A DNA stretch of 64,000 nucleotides. It comes from Actinomycetota bacterium (lineage in GTDB: Bacteria; Actinomycetota; Actinomycetes; Mycobacteriales; Pseudonocardiaceae). A program made the position numbers and the translations under genes. Positions within the stretch are counted from its first letter, which is position 1; each line of letters starts with the position of its first letter. The stretch lies in the NCBI GenBank assembly GCA_021324675.1, contig JAJPIR010000358.1, positions 1-64,000 of the forward strand, given 5' to 3'. Below, in pieces: positions 28,731 through 39,933 of this stretch. Under the pieces are notes generated by a model. The model was not told the origin of the DNA. It saw only the letters and a list, made by a program, of their open reading frames with translations, and did not search any database.

Positions 28731-30203
28731 TTACGTGTTCTTCGCCGCGCTCATGGATAGCTCAGGATGGTCATTGCCAATCATCGGCGGCCAGGGGACA
28801 TCCATCTCGGGTACTGCGAATACGCGAAGATCCTCATAGTGCTGCGCGATCGATGAGATGAAGAGATCGCGACTTATTCCGTCAGCAATTCGATGCGCGG
28901 CCTGTTTCATTCCATTGATGGATGCGCCGCTGGGTCCGTGACTAACGGTGGCGGCAGCAGTGAAGTTGTAGATGTCCGATAGGTATGGAGCTGCGCCTGG
29001 GGCTCGTTCGACATACTCGAAATTTGGACCGAGGTAAGGGAATTGGCTCATGCCTTCGTGCCGCTCCCCGGCAGGTGGCGTGTACTTATCAGCCCACCGG
29101 GCGATGTAGGGTTGGAGATTTCTGATCTCAGGCCTTACTCGTAGGTCTTGCGCTAGCCCAACAGCAATGATGAGGTGGTCAAAGTAGTGCTTGGCGTCTC
29201 TCGAGGTATGTATCTCGATTTTGTTGTCGACCAGTCGCATCGATTCCCATGTCGATCCGAGATGTAGCGAGAAGTTTGGATGACGCGTAGCGCGTTTGAA
29301 TGTTTCCGGTGGCGGGGGTTCATTCAAGGGGAGAATGTGTCGCATAAATCGCCAACGCCACTCGTCGGGGAGGTCTCGGAAGTGGTCGAGGAACCCACTG
29401 AATTCGGTCCACTTGTGTGGGTTGACTCGGTGGAGTTCGGGGCGGCGAAAGAAGAGATCTACGGAGGCAGCTCCCTGTTCAAGAGCTGTTGCAGCGTTGT
29501 CATACGCCGAGGCGCCGCCGCCGAGGATACCGATGCGTCGGCCGGCGAGGGCGCTGAAGTCGATGTCGTCGGCGGCCTGGTTATATCGCTCGGCGGGAAG
29601 GCTGTCCCGCACAGTTGCGGGAACGTTCCAGTGGCCGCTGCCGTCCGCGCCGGTCGCGAAGACAATTTTTCGCGCGTACACACGGTCTGGACCCGAGGCG
29701 CTTTCTACTTCTACCTCGTGCGTTCTCTGAGCGGGAAGGACCGAGGTGACGCGGGTCCGGTAGGAGACTGGAATTGACGTGACGCGCTGGAACCAGAGCA
29801 GATACTCCTGCCAGTGTTCCTTGGGGATCTTCTCGATTGTGTCCCAGCTCTCGTCGCCGTAGCGTGCGCGGTACCATGCTTCACAGGTCAGGCTTGGAAT
29901 ATCTAGGTCAGGTCCGTTGAAGTGCTTTGGCGACCGTAAGGTGAGCATTCGACCGTACGTGGTCCACGGGCCCTGGCGACCCGGTTCTTCCGCGTCGAAT
30001 ACTTGAATATTCGTGATTCCTCGTCGTTGCAGGGCGAACGCGAGTGTGAGCCCGCAGTGTCCCGCGCCTACGATGACGACGTCATACACATGCTGATCCT
30101 CAGGGCCTTCCGTCGGGATAACCCACTGACGATCAGGGAAACGGATCATATATAGGTCGGCGCGTACTCTGCTTTCGAGCTTGGCGAGGGCATCCTTGGG
30201 CAT
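28731..30203 (-). CDS. FAD/NAD(P)H-dependent monooxygenase-like protein
   Basis: A 490-aa flavoprotein. The first dinucleotide-binding motif GAGHCG (residues 46-51) binds FAD; the second, GGGASA (228-233), follows GRRIGIL and binds NAD(P)H. An ATG (FATG) motif near residue 182 and SGHWNVPATV fit flavin monooxygenases that hydroxylate amines, sulfur or ketones. The C-terminal NFTAAATVSHGPSGASINGMK is typical of the substrate/FAD domain. Start at 30203 has GGAG 8 nt upstream. It lies 36 bp downstream of the MFS gene in the same orientation and is probably co-transcribed with it under the DeoR regulator. Substrate unknown; an amino sugar or cyclitol is one option. Confidence 0.82.
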   Translation of the reverse strand: MPKDALAKLESRVRADLYMIRFPDRQWVIPTEGPEDQHVYDVVIVGAGHCGLTLAFALQRRGITNIQVFDAEEPGRQGPWTTYGRMLTLRSPKHFNGPDLDIPSLTCEAWYRARYGDESWDTIEKIPKEHWQEYLLWFQRVTSIPVSYRTRVTSVLPAQRTHEVEVESASGPDRVYARKIVFATGADGSGHWNVPATVRDSLPAERYNQAADDIDFSALAGRRIGILGGGASAYDNAATALEQGAASVDLFFRRPELHRVNPHKWTEFSGFLDHFRDLPDEWRWRFMRHILPLNEPPPPETFKRATRHPNFSLHLGSTWESMRLVDNKIEIHTSRDAKHYFDHLIIAVGLAQDLRVRPEIRNLQPYIARWADKYTPPAGERHEGMSQFPYLGPNFEYVERAPGAAPYLSDIYNFTAAATVSHGPSGASINGMKQAAHRIADGISRDLFISSIAQHYEDLRVFAVPEMDVPWPPMIGNDHPELSMSAAKNT

Positions 30204-30239
30204 GTAATTACTCCAGTGAAGGGAATGGATCGTATCGCA

Positions 30240-31445
30240 TCAGTTGGCGTTGTCGGGTCTTTGTTGCAGTTGTGGCCGTATTTCGACTACCGATGCCAAA
30301 GCCGTCATGAGCAAGCAACAGGTGGCGACGATGCCGAGTGCGACGGTCAGGGAGAAGAGGCCGGAAAGGAAGCCGATCAGCGGGGGTCCGCAGACGAAGC
30401 CTGCCCACCCAAAGGCCGTGGTGAAGGCTAGCGAGGCTGCTGGTGGGCTGCCCGGGACGCGGGTACTGGCACTGAAGATGGAGGGGATGACGAGGCCGAG
30501 GCCGAGGCCGAGCAGGGCAAAGCCAGCGATGCTGGTGGCCGGGCGGCCGATGAGGAGGGCCGTTCCGAAGGCTACGCCGGCAATGAGTGTGCCGGCTCGG
30601 ACAGCGTTGCGGGGGCCGATGCGAGTGATGATTCGATCGCCGATGATCCGACCGGTGAACATTGCGAGGGCGAACGCGGCGTAGCCGCTGCCTGCGGCGC
30701 TGGCGGGTAGGGCGAGGGCGTCGTGGAGGTAGACCGCACTCCAGTCTGCGGCGGCTCCCTCGCTGAGCAGGCCGAGCAACGCGATGGCGCCGAGGCCGAT
30801 CAAGGTGAGGTTAGGACGGGGAAGACTATGGTTGCCAACGTTCGCCGGGTCGGCGTTGGCCGGCAGGAGCCAGCGGGTCAGGGGTAGAACGGTGGCGGCG
30901 ATGATGAGCCCCATGGCGAGGAGATGCCAGCGCAGCGAGATGCCGAGAGCAATCGACATCGCGCCTAGGCCCGTGCCAAAGAAACCTCCAAGGCTCCAGC
31001 ATGCGTGGAAACTGGAGAAGATTGAACGGCCGTACCAGCGTTCGACACTGCCGGCCTGCGAGTTCATCGCGACGTCCAGGCTGCCTTGGAAGGCGCCCCA
31101 GCAGAAAAGAGCGCCGAAAAGCGTCGACACGGAGTTTGAGAAGCCGATCAGGACAGGGGTCAGGCAGTAGCCGGTGAGGGTCAACCGTATGACCGCAGTA
31201 CTGCCCCACCGGGAGATCAGGCAGCCTGCGGTGATCATGGCGACGACCGAGCCAGCAGGGGCACCCAGCAGGGCGACGCCGAGGAGGGCATCGCCCGTGC
31301 CGAGGCTCGCTTTGACCGCCGGAATGTGGGGTGTCCAAGAAGCAAAAAGGGCGGCGTGGGTAACGAAGACAGCGCTCGTGACCAGGCGGCTGCGCTGCAA
31401 CCTGCCTGGCTCCGTCGCGACGACGGCGGTACTGGATAAAGACAT
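30240..31445 (-). CDS. MFS transporter (YbjJ-like)
   Basis: A 401-aa integral membrane protein with about 12 hydrophobic segments. The first loop contains the MFS-like GCLISRWGSTAVIRLT, and SSFHACWSLGGFFGTGLGAMS is characteristic of the YbjJ-like branch of the major facilitator superfamily. Start at 31445 has GGAGGT 6 nt upstream. A palindromic operator (31463-31489) lies just upstream of the start and matches one in front of the divergent DeoR gene, so it is probably repressed by that protein. It likely imports or exports the compound handled by the neighbouring enzymes. Confidence 0.88.
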   Translation of the reverse strand: MSLSSTAVVATEPGRLQRSRLVTSAVFVTHAALFASWTPHIPAVKASLGTGDALLGVALLGAPAGSVVAMITAGCLISRWGSTAVIRLTLTGYCLTPVLIGFSNSVSTLFGALFCWGAFQGSLDVAMNSQAGSVERWYGRSIFSSFHACWSLGGFFGTGLGAMSIALGISLRWHLLAMGLIIAATVLPLTRWLLPANADPANVGNHSLPRPNLTLIGLGAIALLGLLSEGAAADWSAVYLHDALALPASAAGSGYAAFALAMFTGRIIGDRIITRIGPRNAVRAGTLIAGVAFGTALLIGRPATSIAGFALLGLGLGLVIPSIFSASTRVPGSPPAASLAFTTAFGWAGFVCGPPLIGFLSGLFSLTVALGIVATCCLLMTALASVVEIRPQLQQRPDNAN

Positions 31446-31462
31446 CACACCTCCATCTTGTT

Positions 31463-31489
31463 CATTCGAACACACATCGTGCTCGAATG
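31463..31489. promoter_or_regulatory. Palindromic operator 1 (probable DeoR site, MFS promoter)
   Basis: Half-sites CATTCGAACAC and GTGCTCGAATG, 5-nt spacer, match at 10 of 11 positions. The dyad sits 18 bp upstream of the MFS start. A related dyad lies in front of the DeoR gene, so the pair looks like one regulator's binding sites. Confidence 0.7.
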
Positions 31490-31676
31490 TCGAGGAGGTT
31501 CTTCTGTCGCTTCACTTGCGCCGAGGAACAGTCGCCTCCGACCGGGCGAACTGTACCCGCCGTGAGCTGGCCTGATGGACCCCTCAGAGCATGATGGGGC
31601 GCTGTTCCCGGTCGCTACGGGCGAAAAGGACAGAGTAGGCGAAGGGAACGAAGCGGGCGAGGAAGTGCGCGGTTGT

Positions 31677-31703
31677 CATTTGCACGGAATAAGTGTTCAA
31701 ATG
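31677..31703. promoter_or_regulatory. Palindromic operator 2 (probable DeoR autoregulatory site)
   Basis: CATTTGCAC and GTGTTCAAATG form an imperfect dyad of the same family as operator 1 (CATTYG...CRAATG, inner CAC/GTG) with a 7-nt spacer. It ends 5 bp before the DeoR ATG at 31709, overlapping the expected ribosome site. Confidence 0.65.
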
Positions 31704-31708
31704 GCCAG

Positions 31709-32467
31709 ATGGACACTTCAGCGCGCCAAGCCGCGATCGTGGCGGCGGTGAACGAACGATCTCGGGTGTCTGTTACGGAACTCGCTGAGCTTACGGCATG
31801 CTCGGAGATGACCATCCGCCGAGACCTCGAAGCTCTTGAGCGCGGCGCCGCTTTACGACGGGTGCACGGGGGTGCGGTCAGCGTTCCGCTTAGCGCAGTC
31901 GAGCCGCCGTGGGCGGTGCGTGCCCTCACCAATCAGGAGATCAAGCGGAAGCTCGCCTCCGCGTGCGTCGAACTCTTGTCGGACGGCGAGTCCATCATCC
32001 TCGACACCGGCACCACTGCTTTGGAGATCGGCAAAGCGCTGCGTGGGCGATCGGTGACCGTTGCGCCATTATCGGCGCAAGTCATGTGCGCACTGTCGGA
32101 CTCGGCCGGAATTCAGTTGATGGTACCGGGAGGCACGCTTCGGTTGGGCGAGCTGGCCTTCGTCGGTGAGCATGCTGAACGTGCCTTCGCCGACCTTCGA
32201 TTCGATACTATGATCTTGACCTGTTGCGGCCTGGACGCCCGTAACGGCGCCAGTGCCCACCATCTCGAAGACGTCCGCGTTAAGCGCGCCGCCCTTGCAT
32301 CGGCCCGTCGCGTGCTGGCGGTAGTCACCGGCGAGAAACTCGGCCGCGTGGCCTTCGGCCAGATATGCCCACCCAGCCGTATCGACAGGATTATCACCAG
32401 TGCAGACGATGACCAGCTTGAGGTGGATGGCCTGCGGTCAGCTGGGGTCACCGTTATGACGGTCTGA
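31709..32467 (+). CDS. DeoR-family transcriptional regulator
   Basis: A 252-aa repressor. Residues about 4-57 form the DeoR winged helix (RQAAIVAAVNERSRVSVTELAELTACSEMTIRRDLEALE, then GAALRRVHGGAV). Residues about 75-230 form the DeoR sugar-phosphate sensor domain (DGESIILDTGTTALEIGKAL; GEHAERAFADLRFD). ATG at 31709 fits DeoR N-termini better than the earlier in-frame start at 31673. Family members sense phosphosugars, which suggests a sugar-derived inducer for this locus. Two matching operators flank the intergenic region to the MFS gene, implying autoregulation and control of the MFS-monooxygenase unit. Confidence 0.9.
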   Translation: MDTSARQAAIVAAVNERSRVSVTELAELTACSEMTIRRDLEALERGAALRRVHGGAVSVPLSAVEPPWAVRALTNQEIKRKLASACVELLSDGESIILDTGTTALEIGKALRGRSVTVAPLSAQVMCALSDSAGIQLMVPGGTLRLGELAFVGEHAERAFADLRFDTMILTCCGLDARNGASAHHLEDVRVKRAALASARRVLAVVTGEKLGRVAFGQICPPSRIDRIITSADDDQLEVDGLRSAGVTVMTV

Positions 32468-32491
32468 CATGGTGGAGACGATGGAGCCACG

Positions 32492-32650
32492 ATGCATAGT
32501 CCGATCTTTGATATCGGTGGAGTGATCGTCGGGCCGCTGCTGCGTGCGCAGGCGCCGCCGTTCGCGATTACAAACTGGGCGGTCAGAACCTTTCCTATCG
32601 ACCCCTGTCAGCATCCAGCGCTCCGAACCTACACATATTCACTGACATAG
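32492..32650 (+). pseudogene. HAD-hydrolase N-terminal remnant
   Basis: A 52-codon frame starting MHSPIFDIGGVIVGPLLRAQ, which matches a HAD motif I (FDIGGVI), then loses similarity and stops at 32648. It sits between the DeoR gene and an intact HAD gene and is probably what remains of an older paralogue. Confidence 0.4.
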
Positions 32651-32674
32651 CTCCGAGCCTGAAAGGTAAGCTAG

Positions 32675-33322
32675 ATGTCAATTTTACTGTTCGATTTGTT
32701 TGGCGTCATCGCCAGGAAACAGTCCGAGCAGGGCTGTGCCGAGATAGAACAGGCGGCTGGCGTATCAGGAGCTGGCTTCTGGAAGTCCTACTGGTCGCTG
32801 CGCCCGCCCTACGACCGTGGCCAGCAGACTGGGCCAGAGTACTGGCATGCGGTGGCCCAGGATCTCGGTGCGAGCTTCACTGATCAGCGGATCGCCGATC
32901 TCGTGGCGGCCGACGTGCGGAGCTGGAGGGAGGTCGACGACGAGATGGTGGCGTTCGTCTGCGACCTTGCCGAGGAGGGAGTGCGCCTCGGCCTGCTGTC
33001 CAACATCCCGGCGGAATTGGCTACCGACTATGAGCAGCGGCATCCCTGGCTGGATGTGTTCAGCGTGCGGGCTTTTTCCTGCCGTATCGGGTGCGCTAAG
33101 CCGGAGCCCGGTGCCTATGCATGGTGCGGGGCTGCTTTCGAAGCTCCGGCGTCGGACGTCCTGTTCATCGATGACCGGACAGAAAACGTCAAGGCCGCCG
33201 AGATGGCGGGTATGCGAAGCCATCTATTCACCTCGCTCGACACGCTTCGCGTGGCGCTCATGCAAGCATTTTCAGCGGATCGTCGGCGATTCCCATCCGG
33301 ACTGGCTGCGGCGGCCGACTAA
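32675..33322 (+). CDS. HAD-superfamily phosphatase-like hydrolase
   Basis: A 215-aa HAD subfamily IA protein. Motif I is FDLFGV: the nucleophile Asp7 is kept but the second Asp, usually the general acid, is Phe. Motif II is LLSNIP, motif III Lys lies in GCAKPEPGAY and motif IV is LFIDDRTENV. The Phe replacement is also known in YihX/epoxide-hydrolase-like HADs, so activity is possible but altered. GAAAGG lies upstream of the ATG. Its 3' end overlaps the convergent glycosidase gene by 51 bp. Confidence 0.85.
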   Translation: MSILLFDLFGVIARKQSEQGCAEIEQAAGVSGAGFWKSYWSLRPPYDRGQQTGPEYWHAVAQDLGASFTDQRIADLVAADVRSWREVDDEMVAFVCDLAEEGVRLGLLSNIPAELATDYEQRHPWLDVFSVRAFSCRIGCAKPEPGAYAWCGAAFEAPASDVLFIDDRTENVKAAEMAGMRSHLFTSLDTLRVALMQAFSADRRRFPSGLAAAAD

Positions 33323-35290
33323 ATCCCTCGCCGGAACGGCTACCTGTCCAACCGTTAATCGGGGAGAGAACTCATCTCCAATGGTCCCTCGGTTAACCAG
33401 GAATCCTTGGAGTTCGCCGTCCTTGACCACTAGGACCGCCACGCCTCTCGGTGCTAATGATACAGTCACGTCGGTCCCGCCGATGCCATTGGTTATAGTT
33501 TGTTCGCAGTCTTTGCGGCTGAAGAGATAAAGTACCGTGGTGTTGGTACGGGGGTCTGTTCGCCGCAGCCTTAACAGGTTTCCGGCGCCAGAGGGCGCCC
33601 CCTCGGCCAGCACTCTGTGGACCCGTTCGGCGGCGTCCGACAGACCGAGCCCGTTCACGGAAACCTGACGCGCTGTGTCGCTGGCCCTCAGGCCCTGTGC
33701 TAGCACATCGCAGGCGGCACCCGTCTCATCCCGTTCTGGCACTGGACCGATCAAGATAAGTCGATGACCTACTGGAATCAGGGCGGCCAGCTGTTGTTGG
33801 GTTCGTTCGCTCATGGTTAGGCCGCCGACCACGAGCCACGTCCGCTGCCGGGCGTCGGTGTGAGCGTGATCGAGGATGTGATCGCCGGGTCGCGCGATGC
33901 CGACCTCGACGCCGTGGTGGAGCAGCCAGCGAGTCGCTGTGGCGGCGGCCACACTCAGCGGGGCTGCTTCGATGGATTGGTCAGGCCATGCAGTCGCTGC
34001 AACCGACACGGGATCCACCACCAAGTGTGCTCCCACCTCGGCAGTGGCCGATCGCAGCACGTCACCGAACCAGCCAGTGAACGTGGTGAGCAGCCGCAGG
34101 GCCGCAGCGTTGGGATGGGTAGCCCCGGACTCGTCAAGCGGAGCACCAGGGCAGTACGGCGGGGCGAAATCCTCGGGTTTTCCGCCTTCTTGTAGAACAC
34201 CCTCCACACAGGGGCTCAGGTGCGGATCCCAATGGTAGGTGGTGCAGGCCGTGTAGACGCTCACCGTGCTGGAACCGAGGGCCAGACCGAGCAACGAGTG
34301 ATATAGGGGCACTGCGGGTGACGCGTAGGAGTCATCGGTCCAGGTAAAGCCCCAGTTGTCCTCCACCACATCCGTGCGCGCGAACCGCATACCGAGTAGG
34401 AGCGCGGTGAGTGCCTCGTCGGAGAACGTGGCGTTGCCTGTCCAACTGGTGTTAGCCGCGAGCGTACCTGTAGGCATGACCTCAGCCGCACGCACGAGCC
34501 AGGCTTCGGGCAACCGTTGCGCGCCTGGCAGTCCGGGCAGCGGCAGGTTCACCACAACGGGCAGGCTGTTCCCCAAAGCCTCCTTGAAAGAGGTCAGCAC
34601 AGTGCGGGTGCCGATTCCGGTCCATCGCATCCATGTCTCACGGGCGGCGGCGTCAGTCGGAACGCTTGCCCGCTGCCCTAACCACCGGGAGTGGGCGGCC
34701 AGCGCGGCGGCGGAGAAGTCGTCCATGTCGACTGGCTGATGCAGGTCACTAAACGTACCCTCGTTGCCGATCTGCAGAGCGATTACCGGGCCGCGCGGAT
34801 ACGCGACGATGTCCAGGACCTCCTTGTGAACAGTGTGAAGCCACTCGGCTGTCGCAGCCGCGAACTCGCTGCTATGCGCCGACGGCGTTGGCTCGCCCTC
34901 ATCAGTGATCGTGGTACCGCGTGCTGACAGCCGTGAGGGCAGCTTTGTGAGCCGATCCGGCAGGCCGCCGAGCCGGATCTCGGCATGGATGAACGGTCCG
35001 GGTTTGAGGACGGCCTTGAGCCCACTCTCCGCCAGGAGTCCGCAGAATCCCACGACGTCCCGCTGAGGATGGGTGCGCCCGATGAAGTCATACCCCGCCG
35101 CGTTATCGATCTCGGGATCCAACTCGTGCCATCGCCACGGCACGTACGCGGTGATCACCGTGACGCCGAGTTCCTTCAGCGCGCGCAAGTTGTTCGCCCA
35201 GGCGGCTGGGTCCGCACGGTAGTACGGATACTCGGCAAGCACTGCCACCTGCCCGGCCGGCAGTGGTTTCAGATCCGCGAGTCGGCTCAT
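33272..35290 (-). CDS. Glycoside hydrolase family 35-like beta-galactosidase
   Basis: A 672-aa (beta/alpha)8 glycosidase. The N-terminal EYPYYRADPAAWANNLRALKELGVTVITAYVPWRWHE, the LKPGPFIHAEIRLGGLP strand and the acid/base region IALQIGNEGTF (Asn-Glu pair) are GH35-like; a second Glu in VVEDNWGF is a good nucleophile candidate. The C-terminal part is unassigned beta domains. No signal peptide, so it acts in the cytosol on an imported or internally made glycoside. ATG at 35290 shares its A with the dehydrogenase stop (a GTG at 35293 is the alternative). It is the last gene of the four-gene operon. Family 42 is a less likely alternative. Confidence 0.78.
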   Translation of the reverse strand: MSRLADLKPLPAGQVAVLAEYPYYRADPAAWANNLRALKELGVTVITAYVPWRWHELDPEIDNAAGYDFIGRTHPQRDVVGFCGLLAESGLKAVLKPGPFIHAEIRLGGLPDRLTKLPSRLSARGTTITDEGEPTPSAHSSEFAAATAEWLHTVHKEVLDIVAYPRGPVIALQIGNEGTFSDLHQPVDMDDFSAAALAAHSRWLGQRASVPTDAAARETWMRWTGIGTRTVLTSFKEALGNSLPVVVNLPLPGLPGAQRLPEAWLVRAAEVMPTGTLAANTSWTGNATFSDEALTALLLGMRFARTDVVEDNWGFTWTDDSYASPAVPLYHSLLGLALGSSTVSVYTACTTYHWDPHLSPCVEGVLQEGGKPEDFAPPYCPGAPLDESGATHPNAAALRLLTTFTGWFGDVLRSATAEVGAHLVVDPVSVAATAWPDQSIEAAPLSVAAATATRWLLHHGVEVGIARPGDHILDHAHTDARQRTWLVVGGLTMSERTQQQLAALIPVGHRLILIGPVPERDETGAACDVLAQGLRASDTARQVSVNGLGLSDAAERVHRVLAEGAPSGAGNLLRLRRTDPRTNTTVLYLFSRKDCEQTITNGIGGTDVTVSLAPRGVAVLVVKDGELQGFLVNRGTIGDEFSPRLTVGQVAVPARDLVGRRSQSGWESPTIR

Positions 35291-36321
35291 CACTCACTGT
35301 CTTCCGTGGTGCTGCGAATGACGACCTTGAGTGCACGGTAACTCTGGTTGGTGCCAACGGCCAGTGCCGCGAACGCTGCCTCGTGCTCCTCCAACGGAAA
35401 GTGATGGGTGACGAGCTTCTCAAGCGGAAGTCGCGCAGTCAGCGCGACGGCGCGGAGGAAGTGTGGACCCTTGAAGTCGCCCGCTCCGACGATCCGCAGG
35501 CCACGCTGCAGAATCTTCAGTGGCTGCACGTTTATTTCGGCACGGCTGTCATATCCCATGATCACGACAGTGCCTGCGGGCGCCGCGAGGTCGACCGCGA
35601 ACGCAAGTTGGTTGCCGACGGTGTCGATCACGACTGGCCCTGGTGGCAAGGAGGTCATGCCATCTGCGGACACCACGGTGATTCCATCAGGGAAGATGTC
35701 GGTGAGCAGCTTGAGTGCCTGCTTACGCCGGTACTCGTCGCGCTCGACCACGGTGACCGGGCTACCTAAGTACCGCGCGGCCATAGCGCAGAGCAGGCCG
35801 ATAGGGCCACCGCCGATCAGGATGACCCAATCACCCGGCGTGAGATGTGCGGCGTCGAGATTATTCAGCACGCAGGCCAGCGGTTCCGCGAGCACCGCAC
35901 GGTCGTAGCTGACTCCGTCCGGGATTCGGTGCAAGAACCGGTCCTCCAAGACCAGGTAGTCTGCGTACGAGCCGTCTCGGTCGATGCCTACCTCGGTGCC
36001 GACCTTGTTGAGGCAGAAGTTCGTCCGCTCGTCGAGACAGGGCCCACACCGTCCACAATAGAGCGTGGGATTGACGATGACCCGGTCGCCGACGGCCAAG
36101 TTGGTGACGTCTACACCGATCTCGGCGACCTCGCCGACCGACTCGTGCCCCATGATGACACCGTGTGCGGCCGAGAACTTGCCGACAAGCACGCTGCGGT
36201 CAGTACCGCACACGCCGGTCTGGTACACCCGAACCAGCACGTCACGGGATCCAGCGATGGCGGGACGTGCCCGCTCGACCAACTCTAGCTTCAGCGAGTC
36301 GTTGAGCACGAGCGCACGCAT
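35290..36321 (-). CDS. Zinc-dependent medium-chain dehydrogenase
   Basis: A 343-aa MDR-family alcohol/polyol dehydrogenase. Catalytic zinc ligands are Cys38 (TGVCGTD) and His58-Glu59 (MGHESVG); structural zinc Cys87, Cys90, Cys93 and Cys101 are all present (CGRCGPC...C). The Rossmann motif ILIGGGPIGLL is intact. It is nearest to threonine/sorbitol-type and cyclitol or sugar dehydrogenases. Its stop overlaps the glycosidase start and its ATG overlaps the previous gene's TGA by one base (TGATG), so translation is coupled. In the operon it could oxidise a cyclitol or sugar hydroxyl to the ketone that the aminotransferase uses. Confidence 0.88.
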   Translation of the reverse strand: MRALVLNDSLKLELVERARPAIAGSRDVLVRVYQTGVCGTDRSVLVGKFSAAHGVIMGHESVGEVAEIGVDVTNLAVGDRVIVNPTLYCGRCGPCLDERTNFCLNKVGTEVGIDRDGSYADYLVLEDRFLHRIPDGVSYDRAVLAEPLACVLNNLDAAHLTPGDWVILIGGGPIGLLCAMAARYLGSPVTVVERDEYRRKQALKLLTDIFPDGITVVSADGMTSLPPGPVVIDTVGNQLAFAVDLAAPAGTVVIMGYDSRAEINVQPLKILQRGLRIVGAGDFKGPHFLRAVALTARLPLEKLVTHHFPLEEHEAAFAALAVGTNQSYRALKVVIRSTTEDSE

Positions 36322-37277
36322 CAGGCAACGCCTCCAACTATCGGGTCGGTGCCTGGAGAGCTCAAATCCCAGGCCACTGCTTCGAGAATTCGGTTGTGTA
36401 GCTGTGGGTTGGCGGCTGCGATACAGGACTGCTGGTTTTTCGGCCTAAGGTCAAACAGTCTGGTGCCGTGCAGCGAGTTCCCGTACCCGTCGGTGATTAC
36501 TACGCCCGCTCGCTCGGCGAGCAGCACGCTCGCCGCGATGTCGTATGGGAACAGATGCAGGATGCTGCCCCGGCCCGCGGCCAGGAACGCCGCCTCCGTC
36601 TCAGGGTGCTCTTGCAGTACCCGATTCCCGATATCGACATAGGCGTCGAGTTGCCCACTGATGATCCGCGAAATTGAGAATGACGCGCTGTTGAAGACAA
36701 ACACCCCTCCCGTGTTGGCCGACATGTCGACGAGGTGTGCGTACGCCGCGGTCATCAGACGCATGGGGTGACCGTTGAACTCGATGGACCAAAACATTTT
36801 CGCGAGATCGGAGTTGGAGCTCAGGTTGGGCAGTCCGCGCGGGTAGCCCTCGCCTATGAGCGTTGGTTCGTCGGCGCCGGTGTACATCCATGCGCCGCTT
36901 TTCAGTTCCAAAAGCAGCGCGTGGTCGACGTCGGCCAGAGTCGCATCGTCCGACATAGGCGCTGCGGCAATCGATACCGTTGCCAGTTCAAGGTCGGCGG
37001 ACGCGGGCCTTGTGCCGTCGATTGGATCCACTACGAGTACGTGCTGCGGATTCGGCCCCGTCGAACGCAGGCCGTGGTCCTCTGTGTAGACCGCGAAGGA
37101 CTCACCGATGTTCGCGCGAAGGTAGTCCCAGACGACACGCTCGGCGGCAGCGTCGATGTCGAACTGGGCATCGCCTCCGGGAGAGTCGTTGAGCACCCGC
37201 CGAGCTTTGTTCACCATTCGACCAGCGTCGAGTTCGGCCCGGATCGCATGAGCCAACCCCAGCATGAGGCGCTTCAT
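36321..37277 (-). CDS. Inositol-monophosphatase-like phosphatase
   Basis: A 318-aa member of the lithium-sensitive IMPase/FBPase superfamily. The metal ligands are visible: Glu66 (YTEDHG), Asp84 and Asp87 (DPIDGTRPA), and the C-terminal PYDIAASVLLAERAG with the last Asp. The family removes phosphate from inositol, sugars or nucleotides. Length is slightly longer than the usual 260-290 aa because of an insert around 150-200. It overlaps the aminotransferase by 4 nt (ATGA) and the dehydrogenase by 1 nt. Confidence 0.86.
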   Translation of the reverse strand: MKRLMLGLAHAIRAELDAGRMVNKARRVLNDSPGGDAQFDIDAAAERVVWDYLRANIGESFAVYTEDHGLRSTGPNPQHVLVVDPIDGTRPASADLELATVSIAAAPMSDDATLADVDHALLLELKSGAWMYTGADEPTLIGEGYPRGLPNLSSNSDLAKMFWSIEFNGHPMRLMTAAYAHLVDMSANTGGVFVFNSASFSISRIISGQLDAYVDIGNRVLQEHPETEAAFLAAGRGSILHLFPYDIAASVLLAERAGVVITDGYGNSLHGTRLFDLRPKNQQSCIAAANPQLHNRILEAVAWDLSSPGTDPIVGGVA

Positions 37278-38563
37278 GCGAGCTCCTCCTTCAATAGCCC
37301 TTCGAGCCGGTCACAGATCAGGTCTGCTTCCGTCAGGGTGAGAGTCAACGGCGGCCGGATCTTCAACACGTTCCCGTAGCCGTACCGAGAGGTGCGAATG
37401 ATCAGGCCGTGGTCCATGGCCTTCTTGGCCAAGTGGTTTGTTAGCGCCACGTCGGGCTCGCCATCACCCTTGTCCATTTCGAAGCCGATCATCAGGCCGA
37501 CGCCGCGCACGTCGCCGATCTGGCGGTAGCGAGCTTGCATGTCCCCCAGGCGCCCCAGGATGTGGTTGCCTGTGGCGCGAACGTTGGCGAGGAAGTCCGG
37601 CTTGCTGATGACGTCAAGAGTCGCGTTGGCCGCCGCAGCGGCGAGCAGGTTCGCGCCATAGGTGAAGGAGTGGTGATGGGCGGGAAGACCGGCCAACATG
37701 TCATTGGTGAGGATGCCAGCGATCTGGGCACCGGAACCGCCGAGACCCTTCGCGACCGTGATGACGTCCGGCTCGACACCGAAATGGTCGGCGGCGAACA
37801 TGTGGCCGGTCCGGCCGATGCCGGTCTGGATCTCGTCGAAGATTAGCACGATATCGTTGTTGTCGCAGAACTGTCGTAGCGCCTGGAAGTAACCTTCTGG
37901 CGGCACGATGTTGCCACCATTGCCAGAAATTGGTTCGACGACCACCGCAGCGACCTGCCCACTGCTGGCGTATTCCACGAAGTCGCCGATTCGCTGCACA
38001 CACAGCATGCCGCAGGTGCCTTTCACTTGCTTGTAAAAGCAGCGATGACAGTACGGATCAGGGACCTGCAAGCCGCCGGAATAAAGTAATGGGAACGGTT
38101 CTTTGCGGAATGCGTTGCCGGACAAGGAAGTCATCATCATCGTCTGGCCGAGATGGCTGCGGAACATCGAGATGACGTCCCGCTTACCGGTGGCCAGCTG
38201 CGCCATCTTGATCGCACCCTCGTTGGCCGTCGATCCACTGGATACCTTCAAGTGTACCTTCGTGAGATTCTTCGGCGACAGCTCCACCAGCTTAGTGACC
38301 AACTCGTTGATGGGCTTGGACTGAAAGCTGGAGGTGATGTGAATGAGCTGTGCCGCCTGCTCGGTGATGGCCTTGATGACTGCGGGGTGGCCGTAGCCGA
38401 GGCTGAGATTGAAGGTGGCCGAGGCGCAGTCAACGTAGGACCCGCCCTCCGAATCGTAGAGGTAGATACCCTCACCCCGCAGCATCATCTTGTCCGATAC
38501 CGAATAATAAATGTGCTCCTTGATTGACTGACGTAATACTTCGTTCGCCACGCCATTCATCAT
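37274..38563 (-). CDS. Class III PLP-dependent aminotransferase
   Basis: A 429-aa fold-type I aminotransferase of the omega/acetylornithine type. The PLP-phosphate region is VSSGSTANEGAIKMA; Asp243 (LIFDEIQTGIGRTG) pairs with the pyridine nitrogen and Lys272 (VAKGLGGSG) forms the Schiff base. Four Cys (172, 175, 184, 188: YCHRC...CGMLC) form the Cys cluster seen in some GABA-type aminotransferases. First gene of the operon. ATG 38563 is chosen; an extension to ATG 38653 is possible. The 5' third has lower third-position GC than its neighbours, hinting at transfer. It could aminate a keto-sugar or keto-cyclitol; a plain omega-amino acid is the alternative. Confidence 0.86.
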   Translation of the reverse strand: MMNGVANEVLRQSIKEHIYYSVSDKMMLRGEGIYLYDSEGGSYVDCASATFNLSLGYGHPAVIKAITEQAAQLIHITSSFQSKPINELVTKLVELSPKNLTKVHLKVSSGSTANEGAIKMAQLATGKRDVISMFRSHLGQTMMMTSLSGNAFRKEPFPLLYSGGLQVPDPYCHRCFYKQVKGTCGMLCVQRIGDFVEYASSGQVAAVVVEPISGNGGNIVPPEGYFQALRQFCDNNDIVLIFDEIQTGIGRTGHMFAADHFGVEPDVITVAKGLGGSGAQIAGILTNDMLAGLPAHHHSFTYGANLLAAAAANATLDVISKPDFLANVRATGNHILGRLGDMQARYRQIGDVRGVGLMIGFEMDKGDGEPDVALTNHLAKKAMDHGLIIRTSRYGYGNVLKIRPPLTLTLTEADLICDRLEGLLKEELA

Positions 38564-38946
38564 GCCCCCACATTTGGTGATTTCTTCTTTGCGGTCGTAC
38601 CAACGATCATTTTCCAAACCATAGGTAGCCTTAGCATTCAGGCGAAGCCGCATCGCCAAACCTGAAAGCCGGTCTCACGCAACGCCACTGGCCGGAAGCG
38701 GTGGACATGATCGTCACTCTTATGGTCGCCCACTCCCGGCGTCTCGGAATTGCGCTTACGGTCCCATCATCGCAGCCTTTGAGGCGATTCTCTTGTCTGT
38801 ATGTGCAGACTCCTTGTCCATATGCGCACATTAACGTCTACAGGGATGACGTACGCTTGACAAGGGTCTTCCATGCGGAAAATGCAAGGTCCACTGCGAT
38901 GCGTGGCGCCGTACCCGCGTGTTTAATCGACGGTCACATCTAGCGT

Positions 38947-39000
38947 ATCGATCGTACGCCTATTGGTGGATCGATCGTACGCCTATTGGTCGATCGATAC
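38947..39000 (+). repeat. 23-bp tandem repeat across the AraC stop codon
   Basis: Two copies of a 23-bp unit (38947-38969 and 38970-38992) differ at one base, followed by 8 bp of a third. Each copy contains ATCGATCGTACG, itself self-complementary in part. The AraC-type gene's TAG lies inside copy 2, so the repeat may have arisen by duplication at its 3' end or serve as a regulator site for the operon. Confidence 0.7.
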
Positions 39001-39933
39001 GGTAAACTCGTTGTGCCGACAATCCCGAGGACTCAGGCCATAGGCGGTCTTGAAAACACGGCTGAAATGCGCCGAATCCGCGAACCCCCAGCGGTCAGCA
39101 ATAACGGTTATTGGCACGCCGCGCTGATCCGGATTGACCAGATCGCGGCGAGCATGTTCCAGTCGACGTTCCCGGATCCAGCTCGAGACAGTCAGCGCCT
39201 GATCCTCGAACAATCTTTGAAGGTAACGAACGGAGATATGATGCGCAGCGGCCACCGTGGTTGGAGACAGCCCCGGATCGGTCAAATTTTCTTCAATGTA
39301 CGCTTTTATTCTCAGTATAAGTGACCGCTGCGCAGCGCCCTCAATACCGGGCTCGGTCCCACGCAGATCAGCAAAAAACGTCGACAGCAAATCAAGCGTA
39401 TGACCGGCCAGCCTGGCCGCCGTCGCGGACTGGACGTCCCCCGACTGTTTAGCCAGCTGGCGAAGGAAGGACGTTAACAGGGCGCCAACCCCACGACCCG
39501 TCGGTAACACGGTCGCCGCACCCTTGACGAGAGCCTCGAGGTCGGAACCAACGGCCTGGCGCGGAAAAACGAATGCCAAAAAATTAACCGGCTCGCGACA
39601 CACCAACGTGCAGGGACGTTCGGGATCAAAAATGGCCAATTCCCCCGGACGGCGAAGTATCTCCTGGCCGTCCTGGGCGATCAGATGAGGTCCACTCAAC
39701 TGCAGAGAACAAAAAATCTGACCTGGACTACACTCGCGCGTCGGCGAGCGGTGCACCACATACGGGGTTGCCCCGGCCTCTAGGACTTCAATCGATCCCA
39801 TCCGCCTTACCTGCATCCAAGCATGAAAAGACTGGCCAGGAGCGGGTGATGGTTCCATTGGCCGGACATACTCACCGACCAGCTCATGCCACGTCTCAAC
39901 ATGGTAGTCGTCGACCTCGGTTGCGGTCCTCAT
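38983..39933 (-). CDS. AraC-family transcriptional regulator
   Basis: A 316-aa regulator starting MRTATEVDDYHVE, with GAGGAT upstream of 39933; the 55-residue in-frame extension is rejected. Residues about 40-180 form an N-terminal cupin-like sensor domain of the AraC-binding-domain-like group (FCSLQLSGPHLIAQDGQ, PGELAIFDPERPCTL). The C-terminal 100 residues are the double HTH (LSPTTVAAAHHISVRYLQRLFEDQ; GVPITVIADRWGFADSAHFSRVFKTAYGLSPRD). It lies beside the enzyme operon in the same orientation, about 320 bp upstream of it, and may be its activator. Confidence 0.88.
   Translation of the reverse strand: MRTATEVDDYHVETWHELVGEYVRPMEPSPAPGQSFHAWMQVRRMGSIEVLEAGATPYVVHRSPTRECSPGQIFCSLQLSGPHLIAQDGQEILRRPGELAIFDPERPCTLVCREPVNFLAFVFPRQAVGSDLEALVKGAATVLPTGRGVGALLTSFLRQLAKQSGDVQSATAARLAGHTLDLLSTFFADLRGTEPGIEGAAQRSLILRIKAYIEENLTDPGLSPTTVAAAHHISVRYLQRLFEDQALTVSSWIRERRLEHARRDLVNPDQRGVPITVIADRWGFADSAHFSRVFKTAYGLSPRDCRHNEFTVSIDQ

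What the first reader, a model, noticed from the sequence alone, without database searches (positions are those of the whole stretch)
28731..39933. Possible new amino-sugar/aminocyclitol glycoside locus
Seen: an overlapping four-gene operon (class III aminotransferase, IMPase-like phosphatase, zinc dehydrogenase, GH35-like glycosidase; junctions ATGA, TGATG and TGATG), an adjacent AraC regulator, a HAD phosphatase, and a divergent MFS-flavin monooxygenase unit with a DeoR repressor. Known: a dehydrogenase plus aminotransferase acting on cyclitols or sugars, with phosphatases, is the core logic of aminocyclitol and amino-sugar pathways. Inference: the locus imports or makes an amino-substituted sugar or cyclitol glycoside and hydroxylates it. 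I know of no named system with this arrangement.
Basis: partly seen in the sequence, partly recalled or inferred. Interest (0 to 1): 0.8.

Follow-up and report, generated by a model that had tools for sequence, protein, structure and literature searches.

The report
Azasugar operon with a fixed glycosidase
This is a bacterial operon of the known kind that makes sugar-mimicking enzyme blockers (azasugars such as deoxynojirimycin), but it carries a fourth gene for a sugar-bond enzyme that travels with the known three genes through at least four bacterial phyla and that I found mentioned in no paper on these clusters.

Summary
In detail: four intact, overlapping genes (aminotransferase, IMPase-type phosphatase, zinc dehydrogenase, GH35-like protein) with junctions ATGA, TGATG, TGATG. 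They are the azasugar 'three gene cluster' (gabT1-yktC1-gutB1): same order, same Pfam families, the diagnostic aminotransferase motif, and 62%, 55% and 40% identity to a Bacillus velezensis locus (the FZB42 cluster of that species makes 1-deoxynojirimycin). The locus therefore most likely makes an azasugar, not an aminocyclitol. What may be new is gene four. The quartet recurs in the same order in about 20 other species of Actinomycetota, Pseudomonadota, Myxococcota and Bacillota, with co-varying divergence (AT-GH35 r = 0.90). The GH35 protein keeps both catalytic glutamates, has no evident signal peptide, and is nearest in fold to a GH35 beta-1,2-glucosyltransferase that binds two deoxynojirimycin molecules (in a nucleophile mutant). 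My best guess is that it makes or breaks a beta-glycoside of the azasugar in the cytosol; this is inferred. HAD, DeoR and MFS-FMO genes belong to the system by conservation; the AraC gene does not. No product has been shown. New variant of a known kind.

The parts
37274..38563 (-). Azasugar-type class III aminotransferase (GabT1 orthologue); PLP lysine K272 (numbered from the ATG at 38563). The ORF can be extended to a TTG at 38659.
   Evidence: PF00202; motif SGNAFRKEPFPLLYSGGLQVPDPYCHRC, same spacing as in B. velezensis; 80% to Sinosporangium album, 65% to B. velezensis L054
36321..37277 (-). IMPase-family phosphatase (YktC1 orthologue); E66, D84-P-I-D87-G-T and D246 kept
   Evidence: PF00459; 79% to L024, 55% to B. 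velezensis L054; invariant residues
35290..36321 (-). Zinc MDR aminopolyol dehydrogenase (GutB1 orthologue); C38, H59, E60, E146 and structural zinc C89/C92/C95/C103 kept
   Evidence: PF08240/PF00107; 40% to B. velezensis L054, 35% to the gene annotated gutB1 on a P. polymyxa plasmid
33272..35293 (-). GH35-like glycosidase or transglycosidase without an evident signal peptide; acid/base E178, nucleophile E311. ATG start at 35290 (TGATG junction).
   Evidence: PF01301 plus GLMA_2nd; AF2 model pLDDT 89; nearest fold IaSGT, Z 39.5; E178, E311, Y50, E105, N177 invariant in 22 loci
32675..33322 (+). HAD hydrolase (second phosphatase), convergent with the operon
   Evidence: PF00702; 51-62% identical HAD beside the quartet in ten loci, 32-39% in four more
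31709..32467 (+). DeoR-family regulator (ATG at 31709; the ORF can be extended to a TTG at 31673)
   Evidence: PF08220 and PF00455; 29-55% identical DeoR beside many quartets
30240..31475 (-). MFS transporter (likely start ATG at 31445); candidate exporter
   Evidence: PF07690; related MFS genes beside azasugar loci L028, L032, L042, L049, L074
28731..30203 (-). FAD/NAD(P)-dependent monooxygenase-like enzyme (tailoring candidate)
   Evidence: PF13738 and PF13434; 53% identical gene directly behind GH35-MFS in B. jicamae L042
31459..31472 (.). Dyad TGTTC-N4-GAACA just upstream of the MFS ribosome-binding site; possible DeoR operator, weak evidence
   Evidence: only exact copy in the window; not seen at equivalent places in other loci

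Best explanation
The locus makes an azasugar (a glycosidase inhibitor of the nojirimycin/mannojirimycin type). The aminotransferase puts an amino group on C2 of a ketose phosphate (fructose 6-phosphate in the studied relatives), the IMPase removes the phosphate, and the dehydrogenase oxidises the freed C6 hydroxyl so that the amine closes the ring. These steps are inferred from orthology with studied enzymes. The fourth gene, a GH35-like enzyme with an intact active site, then most likely forms or cleaves a beta-glycosidic bond to the azasugar in the cytosol, with the azasugar at subsite +1, so that an inactive or differently targeted glycoside is handled. The MFS protein exports the product, the flavin enzyme and the HAD phosphatase trim it, and DeoR controls the genes; all of these are inferred. 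Sub-estimates: azasugar biosynthesis about 0.9; GH35 belongs functionally to the pathway about 0.85; GH35 acts on a glycoside of the azasugar about 0.4.
For: Same genes, order and families as the three gene cluster of PMC8382821. Identities to B. velezensis AT 62-65%, IMPase 55%, MDR 40%; the AT and MDR values exceed those that the paper gives for the known producers S. subrutilus (60.8/32.9) and C. pinensis (46.6/32.2) against B. velezensis FZB42. Diagnostic motif. In the AT tree the window lies in one clade with B. velezensis, B. atrophaeus and S. lavendulae. GH35: quartet conserved in four phyla; Mantel r AT-GH35 0.90, MDR-GH35 0.96; in 395 class genomes full-length GH35 of this type occurs in 5, and 4 of those have the AT in the same operon. 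Catalytic set intact; nearest solved relative is a glucosyltransferase in whose nucleophile mutant deoxynojirimycin occupies subsites -1 and +1 (PMC8861115). Clostridial versions carry a GT2 glycosyltransferase and a MatE exporter beside GH35.
Against: No product or activity has been shown for any GH35-bearing locus. Most loci have no separate glycosyltransferase, so the glycoside is hypothetical. The nearest non-azasugar relatives of the GH35 look catabolic (ABC sugar importer operon in Nonomuraea). S. monomycini (L074) has AT-IMPase-MDR-HAD-DeoR without GH35 in the fetched stretch, so GH35 is dispensable in at least one close relative.
Confidence: 0.75

Rival explanations
1. The GH35-like enzyme is for self-protection: an inhibitor-tolerant or inhibitor-binding glycosidase that keeps a needed activity going, or soaks up the azasugar, inside the producer.
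For: It is the enzyme class that azasugars inhibit and it lies in the producer's operon; IaSGT binds DNJ; cytosolic (no signal peptide seen in the sequence).
Against: The residues invariant in azasugar-locus GH35s are the same in the non-azasugar relatives L120 and L139, so there is no sign of a tolerance change. No essential cytosolic GH35 is known in actinobacteria (own knowledge).
Confidence: 0.2
2. The locus is catabolic: it imports an amino-sugar or azasugar glycoside, GH35 releases the sugar, and the dehydrogenase and aminotransferase run in the breakdown direction.
For: DeoR regulators and cytosolic GH35s are typical of sugar uptake operons; a relative of this GH35 lies behind an ABC importer in Nonomuraea; the FMO family occurs in rhizobial catabolic contexts.
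Against: The three core enzymes are orthologues of studied biosynthetic ones. Quartet neighbours include tailoring genes (P450, amidase, AMP-binding, GMC oxidoreductase, GNAT, second aminotransferases) and a MatE exporter rather than ABC importers.
Confidence: 0.1
3. The GH35 fold has been re-used for one of the missing late steps of azasugar synthesis (epimerisation or dehydration of mannojirimycin on the way to nojirimycin/DNJ).
For: Those enzymes are unidentified (PMC8382821); GH35 is fixed behind the dehydrogenase; DNJ fits subsites -1 and +1 of IaSGT.
Against: Proven DNJ loci of Bacillus lack GH35. The active site looks like that of an ordinary retaining glycosidase and is shared with relatives outside azasugar loci.
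Confidence: 0.07
4. Aminocyclitol or amino-sugar (kanosamine, scyllo-inosamine) pathway.
For: Aminotransferase, dehydrogenase and phosphatases together; the MDR has weak similarity to scyllo-inosose 3-dehydrogenase (135 bits, cut-off 450).
Against: The AT is class III with the azasugar motif, not DegT/StrS; no cyclitol synthase in the listed neighbourhood; the best-matching orthologues are azasugar genes.
Confidence: 0.03

Closest known systems
Azasugar three gene cluster gabT1-yktC1-gutB1 (Bacillus velezensis FZB42 and others; PMC8382821)
   Same: Same three enzyme families, same order aminotransferase-phosphatase-dehydrogenase, same AT motif, MFS gene nearby; AT 62-65%, IMPase 55%, MDR 40% identical to a B. 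velezensis locus
   Different: Bacillus loci have no GH35, HAD, DeoR or flavin enzyme of this kind; here a GH35-like gene is translationally coupled behind the dehydrogenase
IaSGT, GH35 beta-1,2-glucosyltransferase of Ignavibacterium album (7vkx, 7vkz; PMC8861115)
   Same: Fold (Z 39.5, rmsd 3.4 over 577 residues); Y52/E102/N175/E176 correspond to Y50/E105/N177/E178; no signal peptide; DNJ bound at -1 and +1 of its nucleophile mutant
   Different: 17% identity overall; Leu100 replaced by invariant His103; middle catalytic part not alignable by sequence; activity here unknown
GlmA archaeal exo-beta-glucosaminidases (5gsm, 5gsl)
   Same: GH35 fold and domain order (Z about 35); NCBIfam weak match
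   Different: 78 bits against a cut-off of 1500; Asn177 where GlmA has Asp178, the residue tied to glucosamine recognition
Canonical and 'disordered' gabT1-yktC1-gutB1 clusters of Streptomyces (PMC8466323)
   Same: Same three orthologues in actinobacteria
   Different: The interleaved genes named there are aminoglycoside phosphotransferase, ROK, dioxygenase and sugar-nucleotide types, not GH35
Galactosyrin cluster gsn of Pseudomonas syringae (PMC11844564)
   Same: Phosphatase, MDR-type oxidase and a transporter make an iminosugar
   Different: No aminotransferase; starts from phosphoribosylamine; no GH35

Membership tests
Azasugar three gene cluster (3GC) | Class III aminotransferase (PF00202) with the motif SGNxFR..FP..LxVPxPYCxRC | tested here: met
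   spacing as in B. velezensis L054
Azasugar three gene cluster (3GC) | Adjacent phosphatase PF00459 (or HAD) and dehydrogenase PF00107/PF08240 | tested here: met
   overlapping junctions
Azasugar three gene cluster (3GC) | AT at least 40% identical to GabT1 and in one cluster with known producers | tested here: met
   62-65% to B. velezensis; tree
Azasugar three gene cluster (3GC) | Production of an azasugar | not testable with these tools
   needs culture or heterologous expression and LC-MS
GH35 | Fold and the two catalytic glutamates on strands 4 and 7 of the barrel | tested here: met
   E178 and E311 invariant
GH35 beta-1,2-glucosyltransferase (IaSGT) | Subsite -1 set Y52, E102, N175, E176, N275, E343, Y378 | tested here: inconclusive
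   first four aligned and conserved; E311 and Y347 fit by position only; N275 not aligned
GH35 beta-1,2-glucosyltransferase (IaSGT) | Transfer of beta-1,2-linked glucose without hydrolysis | not testable with these tools
   needs purified enzyme
GlmA exo-beta-glucosaminidase | NCBIfam NF041127 cut-off of 1500 bits | tested here: not met
   78 bits
GlmA exo-beta-glucosaminidase | Asp178 for recognition of the 2-amino group | tested here: not met
   Asn177, invariant in the azasugar-locus set
Aminocyclitol / kanosamine aminotransferase | DegT/DnrJ/EryC1/StrS aminotransferase PF01041 | tested here: not met
   AT is PF00202
GABA aminotransferase / threonine dehydrogenase housekeeping | NCBIfam equivalog cut-offs | tested here: not met
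   GABA AT 245 of 507 bits; Tdh 141 of 458 bits

The most novel reading that the evidence does not exclude
A separate, widely spread branch of azasugar clusters exists in which a cytosolic GH35 enzyme is a fixed biosynthetic partner that glycosylates the azasugar (or de-glycosylates it), so that these bacteria make glycosylated azasugars by a transglycosidase instead of a nucleotide-sugar glycosyltransferase.
Probability: 0.3. Interest if true: 0.75.

Novelty: new variant of a known kind. Interest (0 to 1): 0.52.

Why it matters
Azasugars are drug leads (miglitol and miglustat are derivatives of deoxynojirimycin; own knowledge), their natural roles are unknown, and the enzymes after the first three steps have not been identified (PMC8382821). 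A fourth gene that co-inherits with the three known ones in four phyla, and whose nearest solved relative binds deoxynojirimycin in two subsites, gives a concrete enzyme to test for glycosylation, self-protection or a late step. It also splits the roughly 400 predicted clusters into classes that may make different products.

Tried and rejected
GH35 as a generic neighbour: rejected, since ordinary GH35s in the same class genomes are not near the AT and the full-length type mostly is. GH35 as a decayed pseudo-enzyme: rejected, since all catalytic residues are kept. Azasugar-specific active-site residues in GH35: none found; the invariant set, including H103, is shared with two relatives outside azasugar loci. 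Recent foreign DNA: no compositional sign (operon 62% GC; sampled genome contigs about 63-66%, leaving out one contig that reads 0 GC). DeoR operator TGTTC-N4-GAACA: one exact site, no supporting copies at equivalent places. Promoter and terminator scans gave chance numbers. AraC as a pathway regulator: no co-localisation elsewhere. Literature on a GH35 link to azasugar clusters: none found in the held open-access library; subscription papers and supplementary tables were not searchable, so the quartet may be noted elsewhere. My own gene caller merged frames in GC-rich loci; conclusions rest on tblastn placements instead. The printed 30-residue consensus has two positions more than any real sequence here, including B. 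velezensis, so literal scores understate the match.
Full report
What was checked. The junctions ATGA, TGATG and TGATG were read from the sequence. The operon does not differ in GC from the window or from sampled contigs of the genome.

The first three genes are a known system. The azasugar 'three gene cluster' is defined by a class III aminotransferase, a phosphatase (PF00459 or HAD) and a zinc dehydrogenase, in the order AT-phosphatase-dehydrogenase in Bacillus (PMC8382821). The window meets each of these. Its AT has SGNAFRKEPFPLLYSGGLQVPDPYCHRC; B. velezensis (L054) has SGNSFRKEPFPPQISFGLQVPDPYCSRC. Identities to L054 are 62-65% (AT), 55% (IMPase) and 40% (MDR). For comparison, the paper gives 60.8% and 32.9% for AT and MDR of S. 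subrutilus, and 46.6% and 32.2% for C. pinensis, against B. velezensis FZB42. In a tree of 81 ATs the window falls in one clade with B. velezensis, B. atrophaeus and S. lavendulae. No NCBIfam equivalog is reached by any of the three proteins. PLP lysine, IMPase metal ligands and both zinc sites are kept. An annotated gutB1 ('2-amino-2-deoxy-D-mannitol dehydrogenase') on a P. polymyxa plasmid lies in MFS-AT-gutB1-HAD order and is 35% identical to the window MDR.

The fourth gene. A scan of one genome for each of 84,980 species with the AT, followed by tblastn with the window proteins, found AT-IMPase-MDR-GH35 in the same order and strand in Sinosporangium, Actinomadura, Streptomyces, Actinopolyspora, Jidongwangia, Actinoplanes, a termite-gut Propionibacteriaceae genome, Pseudomonas sp. 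RIT-PI-AD, Bradyrhizobium jicamae, Archangium and Anaerobacterium. In Anaeromicropila a MatE gene lies between MDR and GH35, and Pseudobutyrivibrio lacks the IMPase but has a PHP-domain gene. Bacillus DNJ loci and the S. lavendulae group lack GH35. On the AT tree the GH35 label needs 6 changes against 19.6 in shuffles. Pairwise divergences of the four proteins co-vary strongly over 20 loci (Mantel r 0.88-0.96, none of 2000 permutations as high), as expected of a unit inherited together. A search in the other direction, with a GH35 profile in 395 genomes of the class, found 5 genomes with a full-length match. Four of them, the window included, have the AT in the same operon, while the AT itself occurs in only 8 of the 395. 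The profile was built from azasugar loci, one of which (S. piniterrae) is among those four, so this count leans somewhat towards them.

What the GH35 protein is. The AF2 model (pLDDT 89) is closest to IaSGT, a GH35 beta-1,2-glucosyltransferase (Z 39.5, rmsd 3.4 A over 577 residues), then to archaeal exo-glucosaminidases and beta-galactosidases. E178 (QxxNE) and E311 sit at the ends of the strands expected for acid/base and nucleophile, and are invariant in 22 azasugar-locus sequences, with Y50, E105 and N177. N177 corresponds to IaSGT N175, where glucosaminidases have Asp, which argues for a neutral sugar at -1. IaSGT's Leu100 is an invariant His103 here. In the IaSGT E343G mutant, deoxynojirimycin was seen at subsites -1 and +1 (PMC8861115). 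Relatives outside azasugar loci exist: L120, and Nonomuraea L139, the latter behind an ABC sugar importer. They share the whole invariant set and nest with the clostridial and myxobacterial branch. The family was therefore probably a cytosolic catabolic beta-glycosidase that joined azasugar operons once with a later loss, or more than once.

Mechanism. By orthology: ketose phosphate, amination at C2, dephosphorylation, oxidation at C6, ring closure to a nojirimycin-type azasugar. Inferred: the GH35 enzyme makes or cleaves a beta-glycoside of that azasugar. The clostridial variants, with a GT2 glycosyltransferase and MatE exporter beside GH35, fit a glycosylation/de-glycosylation cycle; the loci without a glycosyltransferase fit transglycosylation. 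Neither is shown. The MFS-FMO pair of the window recurs directly behind GH35 in B. jicamae, so it is probably part of the system; the flavin enzyme may oxidise the ring nitrogen or a carbon. HAD and DeoR are conserved beside many quartets. Other quartets carry GMC-GNAT-DegT, class III AT plus AMP-binding, or P450-amidase modules, so the quartet looks like a core onto which different tailoring genes are attached.

Verdict. The locus is a member of the known azasugar three gene cluster, in a variant with a fixed GH35 gene that I did not find described (with the limits of an open-access library). The identity of the product and the role of GH35 remain open.

Noticed in passing
L036, L037, L040, L045, L046, L047, L048, L069: Azasugar-type aminotransferases (60-71% to the window) in Mesobacillus, Anoxybacillus, Fictibacillus, Clavibacter, Rathayibacter, Streptomyces and Paenibacillus without any IMPase or MDR hit nearby; several share other conserved neighbours (clusters c9, c27, c28, c32). 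Possibly a different use of this aminotransferase.
   Followed up: no
L038, L043, L044: Cyanobacteria (Brasilonema, Cylindrospermum) carry the azasugar-type AT (with an adjacent IMPase in L038) together with a second, 27% identical class III aminotransferase (L038, L043) and more distant MDR genes.
   Followed up: no
L072:11331-16956, L073:10426-14765: In Lachnospiraceae a MatE transporter lies between dehydrogenase and GH35, followed by a PHP-domain protein and a GT2 glycosyltransferase; Pseudobutyrivibrio lacks the IMPase, so PHP may be its phosphatase. L073 also lies next to lanthipeptide synthetase genes.
   Followed up: partly
L013-L022: Related class III aminotransferases (51-55%, motif NGxSRMRAPFP instead of SGNxFR) in other conserved neighbourhoods of the same family, including one in the same genus (L021); probably another pathway. 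L013 itself has the azasugar motif (63%).
   Followed up: partly
38947-38992: Two tandem 23-base copies (ATCGATCGTACGCCTATTGGTGG/CG) at the end of the AraC gene, between it and the aminotransferase.
   Followed up: no
L080, L081: Nearly identical aminotransferase loci in records titled Kitasatospora sp. GP82 and Saccharothrix sp. ST-888, two families apart: recent transfer or a mislabelled record.
   Followed up: no
L139:5933-11000: In Nonomuraea gerenzanensis a relative of the GH35 follows an ABC sugar importer (binding protein and two permeases): a likely catabolic ancestor type. The 11.85 Mb record is filed as a plasmid.
   Followed up: partly
window:28731-30203: The flavin enzyme belongs to a family found in more than 300 plasmid records, mostly Rhizobiaceae, in contexts such as an ABC sugar transporter with isochorismatases or a xanthine-dehydrogenase-type operon; its reaction is unknown.
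   Followed up: partly
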